NCBI GenBank assembly: GCA_919901555.1
Contig: CAKKPG010000010.1
Coordinates: forward strand, 1 to 64,000
Direction: 5' to 3'
Length of the DNA: 64,000 nt
DNA from: Nitrospiria bacterium
Lineage (GTDB): Bacteria > Nitrospirota > UBA9217
Part shown: in pieces, positions 59,852-62,363 of the stretch
Position numbering within the stretch: the first letter of the stretch is position 1
Layout: the number at the start of each line of letters is the position of its first letter
Notes under the pieces: generated by a model
The model's input: the letters and a program-made list of their open reading frames with translations, nothing else
What the model was told of the DNA's origin: nothing
The model's database searches: none
Program-made: the position numbers and the translations under genes

Positions 59852-61378
59852 CTATAGCCGCTCCAATGCCCTCCGCAGCGCCTCGGCCTTGTGGAGCGTT
59901 TCGGCATATTCCCGCTCCGCGTCGGAGTCCGCCACGATCCCCGCGCCGACCTGGACGTAGGCGGTGCCGCCCTTGATCACAAAGGTCCGTATGATGATGT
60001 TCAGGTCAGCGTCTCCGGCATGGGAGATGTATCCGATGGAGCCCGTATAGGGGCCGCGGGCCACGGGTTCGAGCTCGTCGATGATCTCCATGCAGCGCAC
60101 CTTGGGCACGCCCGTGATCGTGCCGCCGGGAAAGACGGCGCGGATGAGATCGAAGCAGTCCCGGCCCGAAGCGAGCGTTCCCCGCACGTTCGAGACGATG
60201 TGGATCACGTGGGAGTAGTCCTCGACCACCATCATCTCGTCCACCTGCACCGTGCCGTAGTCGCAGACCTTGCCCAGATCGTTCCGCTCCAGATCGAGGA
60301 GCATGATGTGCTCGGCCCGCTCCTTTTCATTGGTCAGGAGCTCAGAGGAAAGGGTCCGGGTCTCCGTAACGTCCATCCCCCGCCTGCGGGTGCCGGCGAT
60401 CGGCCGGGTATCGGCCATGCCCTCGCGGAGCCTGATGAGCCGTTCCGGCGACGAGCTTACGAGCGCCAGATCGCCAAACTCGAGATAGGCCGCAAAGGGC
60501 GATGGATTGACGTCGCGAAGGATCCGGTACAGCCGCAGCGGGTCCGCATCTCCGATCGCCGCGGCGAAGCGCTGCGACAGGTTTGCCTGATAGACGTCCC
60601 CGGCCGCAATGTACTCTTTGCACTTCCGGACCATGGACTCGAACGCGGCTTGCGTCATGTTCGGCTCGAGGGGGATCTGCCTGCCGGTCCCCGTACCGGG
60701 GGCATCATCGGCAAAGGCGCTGCACGATGCAGCCAGCCTCTCGCGAAGTTTTGACAGTCTGGCAGTCGCTTCGTCATACAGCCTGTCCCAGTGGCCCGGC
60801 TCCGGTCTCCGGAAGCCCATCTCCTGCTCCCGGGCGCCGGGGTTCACGATCAGCCACGCCTTGTTCAGGACGTGGTCAAAGGCAATGACGGTGTCCACGA
60901 ACACGAAATATGCCTCGGGGATCGCAAGGTCGGGCTGCGCGCGCTTCGGCAGCTTCTCGAACTGATGCACAAAGTCGTACGAAAAGAACCCCACGGCGCC
61001 GCCGGTAAAAGGGGGAAGGCCGGCGATCCGCTCCGTCCGATAGTTGGCCATGAGCTCCCGCAGCTTCGCGAGCGGCTTCCGTTTCATGGACGCCCTGCTG
61101 CCGTATTTCCCGGCAGGAGGGGCGGGCAGGCTGAGCTCCACCGTGTCGCCTTTTGATTTGAAAATGAGATAAGGGTCCGCCGACACAAAGGAATACCTGC
61201 CGATCTTCTCGCTCACCCGGGCGCTTTCGAGCAGCACGGCATGGCCGTCGGCCCTGACGGACTCGAGCGCCGTTACGGGTGTGCATCCCGGGAAATCGAT
61301 CTCCACGGACAGCGGCAGGACCTTCCCCTGCAGCGCCTGGTCGAGAAACTCACGTTTTGTTGGTTTCATAGTATCCAT
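59852..61378 (-). CDS. trpE: Anthranilate synthase component I
   Basis: This 508-residue enzyme has the tryptophan-feedback motif LLES (49-52), GAVGFFSYDFVHQFE, the chorismate-binding core DVYQANLSQRF, and DTRPIAGTRRRG. The PIAGT residue pattern favours TrpE over PabB (PIKGT). LLDLERNDLGKVCDYGTV and the C-terminal AGAGIVADSD follow. It makes anthranilate with a glutamine amidotransferase subunit, which is not in the window. It stands apart from any other trp gene. Confidence 0.92.
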   Translation of the reverse strand: MDTMKPTKREFLDQALQGKVLPLSVEIDFPGCTPVTALESVRADGHAVLLESARVSEKIGRYSFVSADPYLIFKSKGDTVELSLPAPPAGKYGSRASMKRKPLAKLRELMANYRTERIAGLPPFTGGAVGFFSYDFVHQFEKLPKRAQPDLAIPEAYFVFVDTVIAFDHVLNKAWLIVNPGAREQEMGFRRPEPGHWDRLYDEATARLSKLRERLAASCSAFADDAPGTGTGRQIPLEPNMTQAAFESMVRKCKEYIAAGDVYQANLSQRFAAAIGDADPLRLYRILRDVNPSPFAAYLEFGDLALVSSSPERLIRLREGMADTRPIAGTRRRGMDVTETRTLSSELLTNEKERAEHIMLLDLERNDLGKVCDYGTVQVDEMMVVEDYSHVIHIVSNVRGTLASGRDCFDLIRAVFPGGTITGVPKVRCMEIIDELEPVARGPYTGSIGYISHAGDADLNIIIRTFVIKGGTAYVQVGAGIVADSDAEREYAETLHKAEALRRALERL

Positions 61379-61441
61379 GGAAAAGTGCGGGAATAGTAAA
61401 CATATTACACGGAAGGGTCAAGAGAAATTATTGTCCTTCTA

Positions 61442-61470
61442 TTTACCCCGGCGGCAAAGTGTGCTATAAT
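61442..61470 (+). promoter_or_regulatory. Promoter of a gene-free, structured region
   Basis: TTTACC (61442-61447) and TATAAT (61465-61470) are 17 bases apart. A transcript would begin near 61477 and run into the structured segment at 61528. Confidence 0.5.
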
Positions 61471-61476
61471 GAGCAT

Positions 61477-61845
61477 AAGGAAAAGGACATATTCGGTTCT
61501 TTGAAATAAAAGGAACGTCATGTTACAGGCGTTGCCGAACCAACACCGATAGGTGTACGTATTTTATCACCGTTATGAGGAGCATAAGGCAACGGCTTTG
61601 AAGTGGCGCCGGAACCGGTAAGCGGGCAGCAAGTTGAGCGGTCAGGCTCCCGGTTCGCAGGGTCACGAAAGGCCGGAAGAGCCGAAGGCTCCGAAGCCGC
61701 AGGAGAACGCGGGAAGCCGCAATAGACACCACGCTTCACAGGGTCCGCACGGCGGAGCCGCAGAAGCAGGAGTTCTTCCCGTCACTTATCCACGGCTCAG
61801 CGGAATGTTAAAAACACGGTTCAGGGGCAACGCCTTTTTATTTTG
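61477..61845 (+). ncRNA. Candidate structured RNA, possibly HEARO/omega-RNA-like
   Basis: The region between trpE and the PA2779-family gene has no supported open frame but strong paired arms. CGTTGCC (61530-61536) pairs with GGCAACG (61588-61594), enclosing ACACC-GATA-GGTGT (61543-61556) and TTATG-AGGAG-CATAA (61573-61587): a three-way junction. Then GAACCGG pairs with CCGGTTC (61612-61618, 61650-61656), and GAGCC-GAA-GGCTC forms a hairpin near 61680. A T-rich stretch (61834-61844) could end it. Family assignment is unknown; length and helix style resemble HEARO/omega-RNA, though no IscB frame follows. Other short ORFs here are unconvincing. Confidence 0.4.
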
Positions 61846-62012: not shown

Positions 62013-62363
62013 ATGAAACGCAGACTCACTGCATTACCGCTCTCAATCTATTTCGTCGCTGTGCTGATCGCCATTACCGCCATGGCGGGCCCTGCTGAGG
62101 CGATGTTCCTGCCTGCCGCTCCCCAGACCCGTGCGGACGATCTGGCCACGATCCAGAAGGCCCTTGAATCCAGGACGATTCAGCAACGCCTTATGGATTA
62201 CGGGCTTTCCCCTGAGGAGGCATTGGCGAAAATGAGCGGCCTTTCGGACGAACAGGTCCACCGGCTTGCGGCAAACGTCGATGCCCTCCAGGCAGGCGGC
62301 CGCGGATCCGACGACATTATCATTATTTTGCTGCTGGTGCTGCTCATCGTTATTCTCATATAG
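62013..62363 (+). CDS. PA2779-family protein (DUF6627)
   Basis: This 116-residue protein starts at ATG 62013 after GGAGGAGGG. It has a signal-like helix (LTALPLSIYFVAVLIAITAMAGPAEA), the family segment MFLPAAPQTRADDLATIQKALESRTIQQRLMDYGLSPEEALAKMSGLSDEQVHRLA, and a C-terminal helix IIIILLLVLLIVILI. In other genomes it is paired with a PA2778-type cysteine peptidase, not seen here. It is followed by a strong terminator. Function unknown. Confidence 0.85.
   Translation: MKRRLTALPLSIYFVAVLIAITAMAGPAEAMFLPAAPQTRADDLATIQKALESRTIQQRLMDYGLSPEEALAKMSGLSDEQVHRLAANVDALQAGGRGSDDIIIILLLVLLIVILI

What the first reader, a model, noticed from the sequence alone, without database searches (positions are those of the whole stretch)
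61442..61845. Gene-free transcribed-looking region with a three-way junction and other strong helices
A promoter-like TATAAT feeds into about 300 bases without a credible frame. Several arms pair exactly (CGTTGCC/GGCAACG, ACACC/GGTGT, TTATG/CATAA, GAACCGG/CCGGTTC, GAGCC/GGCTC). The size and helix style recall HEARO or omega-RNAs of the IscB family, but no IscB frame follows, so it could be a stand-alone copy, a riboswitch or a new RNA. The family name is a guess to be tested.
Basis: inference. Interest (0 to 1): 0.7.

Follow-up and report, generated by a model that had tools for sequence, protein, structure and literature searches.

The report
New folded RNA with ribosomal-style leader
Next to a chorismate-pathway gene, a little-known group of groundwater bacteria (Nitrospirota) carries a previously uncatalogued ~310-nucleotide folded RNA gene whose leader bears the same signal these bacteria use to transcribe and fold their ribosomal RNA, so it may be a non-ribosomal client of that machinery.

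Summary
Window 61528-61839 (+) encodes a conserved structured RNA. Clear orthologues sit divergently beside the same pabB/trpE-like gene in 11 other genomes of the family (12 of 14 with the window; the other two, 83% and 74% complete, have only divergent copies). No credible match turned up in 382 other Nitrospirota genomes. A 78-bp consensus fold has strong compensatory change: 30 pairs changed on both sides versus 14.4±2.5 shuffled, and 10-15 when partners are slid. The architecture is a 14-bp closing helix ending in U5, a small hairpin, a connecting helix and two long arms. Divergent paralogues with the same ends and architecture occur in four genomes. Nothing matches Rfam, including HEARO. 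RNase P, tmRNA and 6S RNAs lie elsewhere. Downstream genes differ between genomes, so it is not a riboswitch. All 12 orthologues have an extended -10 promoter, and 11 of 12 have TCTTTGA 23-48 nt upstream of the fold. This is the boxA of the family's own 16S rRNA leaders, suggesting Nus-assisted transcription and folding. Two of its five helices are not conserved, and one pairs elsewhere. Transcription and function remain untested.

The parts
61442..61470 (+). promoter: -35-like TTTACC (61442-61447), 17 nt, extended -10 TGCTATAAT (61462-61470)
   Evidence: extended -10 TGNTATANT present upstream of 12/12 orthologues and 4/5 paralogues tested; alignment
61495..61507 (+). boxA-like leader element GGTTCTTTGAAAT
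   Evidence: TCTTTGA in 11/12 orthologues, chance 0.3-1.6% each; same sequence as boxA of 16S rRNA leaders of four relatives, CATGGTCTTTGAAAACTAAATAGG; absent from paralogues
61528..61839 (+). conserved structured RNA (core, 312 nt)
   Evidence: orthologues 304-340 nt; CM matches of orthologues 173-296 bits with R1 and 204-294 bits with R2; covariation
61528..61541 (+). P1 closing helix, 5' strand GGCGTTGCC-GAACC
   Evidence: mostly invariant in orthologues; double changes at two pairs, at four with paralogues
61818..61834 (+). P1 closing helix, 3' strand GGTTC-AGG-GGCAACGCC
61835..61839 (+). U-tract after P1 (intrinsic-terminator-like end)
   Evidence: TTTTT in 11 of 12 orthologues
61543..61556 (+). 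P2 hairpin ACACC-GATA-GGTGT
   Evidence: compensatory A-U/G-C
61563..61574 (+). P3 connecting helix 5' strand (TTTATC, CCGTT)
   Evidence: partner 61799-61812
61799..61812 (+). P3 connecting helix 3' strand
61579..61692 (+). arm A, with conserved terminal hairpin around loop AAGTTGA
   Evidence: helices 6-9; loop nearly invariant
61695..61797 (+). arm B, with terminal hairpin GCTTC..GGGTCC/GGAGCC..GAAGC
   Evidence: helices 10-14; inner hairpin 98-100% paired with 4 of 5 upper pairs compensated
59852..61378 (-). divergent neighbour, pabB/trpE-like gene, linked to the RNA in 12 genomes
   Evidence: Chorismate_bind and Anth_synt_I_N; orthologues 64-74% identical beside each copy

Best explanation
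This is a free-standing non-coding RNA gene of a new family. Its ~310-nt RNA is transcribed from its own sigma-70-type promoter. The leader carries a boxA, so NusB/S10 and partner Nus factors are expected to join RNA polymerase, as they do on rRNA. This would protect a long untranslated transcript from Rho and hold the 5' end close while the last nucleotides are made, so that the 14-bp closing helix P1 forms across ~285 nt, followed by U5 termination. The mature molecule is a closed, two-armed structure that most likely works in trans, probably as a scaffold or partner in an RNA-protein (or RNA-only) complex. Shown here by computation: conserved fold, promoter motif, boxA sequence identity, pabB linkage, paralogues, no Rfam class. 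Inferred: transcription, Nus binding, end processing. The trans/scaffold role is the weakest step.
For: Orthologues in 12 of 14 family genomes beside the same gene, and divergent copies only in the other two. Covariation: 53 double-change cells versus 19.1±3.7 shuffled and 12-19 slid; with four paralogues, 112 versus 33.9±4.7 (alignment fitted to the model). Sense-strand z-scores -3.5 to -9.6. Promoter 12/12 and boxA 11/12. Identical boxA in 16S leaders. Differing downstream genes. Paralogues with the same ends and architecture, most with their own promoter motif.
Against: No transcript data. The alignment has only 10 distinct orthologues, so arm details are less certain than P1, P2 and the arm tips; P3 pairs are broken in some sequences. 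Paralogues lack boxA, so boxA is not essential for the fold itself. No protein partner identified.
Confidence: 0.75

Rival explanations
1. A cis-acting leader (riboswitch or attenuator) in which P1 plus the U-run is a regulated terminator for the downstream gene.
For: U-run after P1; in L017, L021 and L024 a glgC-like gene lies downstream on the same strand.
Against: The downstream gene differs (DUF6627 protein, glgC-like, convergent genes) while the RNA is conserved; P1 is the constitutive closing helix with no conserved alternative partner; some paralogues are followed by separate terminator-like hairpins.
Confidence: 0.07
2. A base-pairing or protein-sponge sRNA (for example CsrB-like) whose exposed loops act on mRNAs or a regulator.
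For: Conserved loop AAGTTGA; free-standing transcript with terminator-like end.
Against: GGA motifs not enriched (8 observed, 7.8 expected in the window copy); most of the molecule is paired.
Confidence: 0.12
3. A non-autonomous mobile element (MITE-like) with terminal inverted repeats GGCGYTGCC/GGCAACGCC.
For: Inverted ends, dispersed divergent copies, one tandem pair.
Against: Same locus in 12 genomes with compensatory changes inside both arms; the closest two copies found within one genome are 75% identical; most copies have a promoter motif upstream.
Confidence: 0.04
4. HEARO/omega-RNA of an IscB-type nuclease acting in trans.
For: Similar size; three-way junctions.
Against: No Rfam HEARO match; no RRXRR (IscB) domain found in 14 genomes, though the control set did not ring either; the 5' end is invariant, not a guide.
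Confidence: 0.01

Closest known systems
rRNA leader / boxA-Nus antitermination system (rrn operons)
   Same: Same boxA sequence as the 16S leaders of the family; boxA lies just upstream of a helix that joins the two ends of the RNA, like the leader-trailer helix (PMC10250234).
   Different: Not ribosomal, ~310 nt, ends in a terminator-like U-run, no processing stalk shown; Nus binding untested. The boxA survey of PMC5725501 states that it did not consider non-coding RNAs.
OLE, ROOL and GOLLD large ornate bacterial RNAs
   Same: Orphan RNAs with an extensive fold and function poorly understood (PMC12286853).
   Different: No Rfam match; roughly half the size or less; no prophage or tRNA-island setting; one vertically kept locus.
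HEARO / omega-RNA (RF02033)
   Same: Comparable length and branched fold.
   Different: No sequence or structure match, no nuclease gene seen, conserved 5' end.
6S, tmRNA, RNase P RNA
   Same: Free-standing structured RNAs of similar size.
   Different: Found separately in these genomes.

Membership tests
HEARO / omega-RNA | match to Rfam covariance model | tested here: not met
HEARO / omega-RNA | adjacent IscB/IsrB (HNH or RRXRR) gene | tested here: not met
   no such ORF recognised around the window and B copies; genome-wide RRXRR search negative but without a positive control
HEARO / omega-RNA | variable guide segment | tested here: not met
   first 14 nt nearly invariant
riboswitch / cis leader | conserved position upstream of a functionally related gene | tested here: not met
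OLE/ROOL/GOLLD | match to Rfam covariance models | tested here: not met
CsrB-like sponge | excess of GGA motifs | tested here: not met
6S / tmRNA / RNase P RNA | is the genome's copy of that RNA | tested here: not met
boxA-dependent (Nus) transcript | boxA sequence in the leader equal to the organism's rRNA boxA | tested here: met
   (rRNA leaders from four relatives; no 16S was found in the window's own assembly)
boxA-dependent (Nus) transcript | NusB/S10 binding and effect on transcription or folding | not testable with these tools
   needs biochemistry
structured non-coding RNA gene | compensatory base changes supporting a fold | tested here: met
structured non-coding RNA gene | transcript | not testable with these tools
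   no RNA-seq available
MITE | near-identical dispersed copies with target-site duplications | tested here: not met
   closest within-genome pair 75% identical; no duplications seen at copy edges by eye

The most novel reading that the evidence does not exclude
A non-ribosomal structured RNA that has been recruited to the ribosomal boxA/Nus transcription-and-folding machinery as its dedicated biogenesis route, in a whole bacterial class, with paralogues that start at the fold itself and do without it; a natural test of whether Nus factors are general co-transcriptional RNA chaperones.
Probability: 0.4. Interest if true: 0.8.

Novelty: new variant of a known kind. Interest (0 to 1): 0.62.

Why it matters
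It adds a large structured RNA family that no Rfam model matches, conserved across a bacterial class (UBA9217, inferred from record names) known here only from environmental genomes. Its boxA leader makes a standing question directly testable: whether the Nus/boxA complex, thought to act on rRNA mainly by promoting folding (PMC5725501), also serves other structured RNAs. A ~310-nt client RNA is far easier to study than a 16S rRNA precursor, and the paralogues without boxA are a built-in comparison.

Tried and rejected
HEARO/omega-RNA, riboswitch, CsrB-like sponge, 6S/tmRNA/RNase P, MITE and protein-coding readings were tested and set aside (see membership tests). Weak CM hits outside the family (G025, G284, G082, G323 and others, 10-23 bits, mostly partial over one arm or collapsed on the ends) were treated as chance. 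Of 47 loci with the exact 20-nt 5' motif in GTDB r220 genomes, only the ten Nitrospirota ones carry the RNA. Of two viral contigs with the motif, neither does. A loop-to-P3 pseudoknot (AAGUUGAG with CUCAAC) fits some sequences by eye but fails in others and is not claimed. A Ro60/Y-RNA link, suggested by one copy beside archease-RtcB, was not tested further because other copies lack that context.

Full report
WHAT IS THERE. The stretch 61442-61845 lies between a minus-strand pabB/trpE-like gene (59852-61378; Chorismate_bind, Anth_synt_I_N) and a plus-strand DUF6627 gene (~62013-62363). It holds no credible frame: the short ORFs have no Pfam or PHROGs match, and relatives differ by indels that are not multiples of three. 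Rfam gives nothing at gathering threshold for the whole window and only chance-level matches at E<=10 for the element. The RNA folds at -144.6 kcal/mol for 371 nt, z = -5.3, 0 of 100 shuffles as good.

CONSERVATION. A blastn search of 99 genomes found the element, usually at 69-76% identity, in 10 of 13 other genomes of the same family and in none of 85 from other families. The matches stop at the same places, defining a core at 61528-61839. A covariance model (R1) and a better one with a curated structure (R2) then matched all 14 family genomes. Among 382 other Nitrospirota genomes they gave only weak hits (at most 23 bits), partial over one arm or collapsed on the ends. In 12 genomes the RNA lies divergently beside the same pabB/trpE-like gene. 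The two exceptions, G010 and G003, are 83% and 74% complete and show only divergent copies. No relative in the list falls between family and phylum in kinship, so the family is probably the whole class UBA9217 (an inference), an early-branching, mostly aquifer-derived Nitrospirota class (PMC11033732, PMC10203281).

STRUCTURE. RNAalifold on ten distinct orthologues gave a stable consensus, used as a 78-bp structure: P1 closing helix (14 bp), P2 hairpin, P3, then two long arms. In pair counts 89.1% of cells are paired. Thirty pairs change on both sides (shuffled 14.4±2.5, slid controls 10-15), with 53 such cells (shuffled 19.1±3.7, slid 12-19); no shuffle of 500 reached the observed values. Shuffling ignores relatedness, but the slid controls keep it. 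Arm tips are the best supported; the base of arm B and P3 are less regular. G-U pairs are frequent, which fits the plus strand.

PARALOGUES. Divergent copies ('B-type') with the same ends (GGCGYUGC ... CAACGCC), the hairpin next to P1, P3 and two arms occur in G010 (three), G005, G003 and G006. In G006 one lies tandemly 76 nt after the orthologue. Adding four of them to the alignment raises double-change cells to 112 versus 33.9±4.7 shuffled, with the caveat that this alignment was fitted to the model. Their z-scores are -4.8 to -8.9. Four of the five whose upstream DNA was tested have TGNTATANT 16-17 nt before the first base of P1, so their transcripts probably begin at P1.

LEADER AND BOXA. 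All 12 orthologues have TGNTATANT 55-103 nt upstream of P1 and TCTTT 23-48 nt upstream, TCTTTGA in 11. The 16S rRNA leaders of four genomes of the family carry CATGGTCTTTGAAAACTAAATAGG about 130 nt before 16S, so the element leader's GGTCTTTGAAA-type sequence is the local boxA. No 16S was found in the window's own assembly for comparison. In rRNA, boxA loads NusB-S10 and partners. Their main role there is now thought to be RNA folding (PMC5725501, introduction), and the helix that joins leader and trailer is essential for active 30S formation in E. coli (PMC10250234). The layout here is analogous: boxA, then the 5' strand of a helix whose 3' strand comes ~285 nt later. By analogy, and not shown, the Nus complex would aid full-length synthesis and closure of P1.

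ALTERNATIVES. The family's 6S, RNase P and tmRNA genes are elsewhere. Downstream genes differ, against a riboswitch. GGA motifs are not enriched, against a CsrB-like sponge. Nine homologous loci also lack Rfam matches above gathering score. No IscB gene was recognised beside any copy, and an RRXRR search of the 14 genomes was negative although its control set was silent too. The closest within-genome pair of copies is 75% identical, against a recent mobile element.

LIMITS. No expression data; MAG-based genomes; shortened CM calibration; outside the phylum only an exact 20-nt motif scan was possible, so distant homologues could be missed. The function itself is inferred.

Noticed in passing
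L146, L147, L149, L150 (upstream of RNase P RNA in G000, G001, G005, G012): A boxA-like GTTCTTT (TCTTTGA in two) lies 10-20 nt before the RNase P RNA in 4 of 5 genomes checked; the 6S and tmRNA leaders checked have no TCTTTGA. Nus/boxA control may extend to several structured RNAs in this class.
   Followed up: partly
L092:2805-5226: In G003 a B-type copy lies just downstream of, and convergent with, an archease-RtcB RNA-repair gene pair.
   Followed up: partly
L093:13469-14060 and L138:8-300: In G006 the orthologue is followed 76 nt later by a divergent second copy, continuing on another contig with one mismatch in the overlap.
   Followed up: yes
window 61390-61425: Conserved GGTCAAG (alignment) reads on the minus strand as TTGACC, 17 nt from TACTAT: probable promoter of the divergent pabB-like gene (by eye).
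   Followed up: no
window upstream region 61440-61470 and relatives: Several orthologues carry TTGACA only 8 nt before the -10 hexamer, too close for a -35; possibly a regulator site.
   Followed up: no
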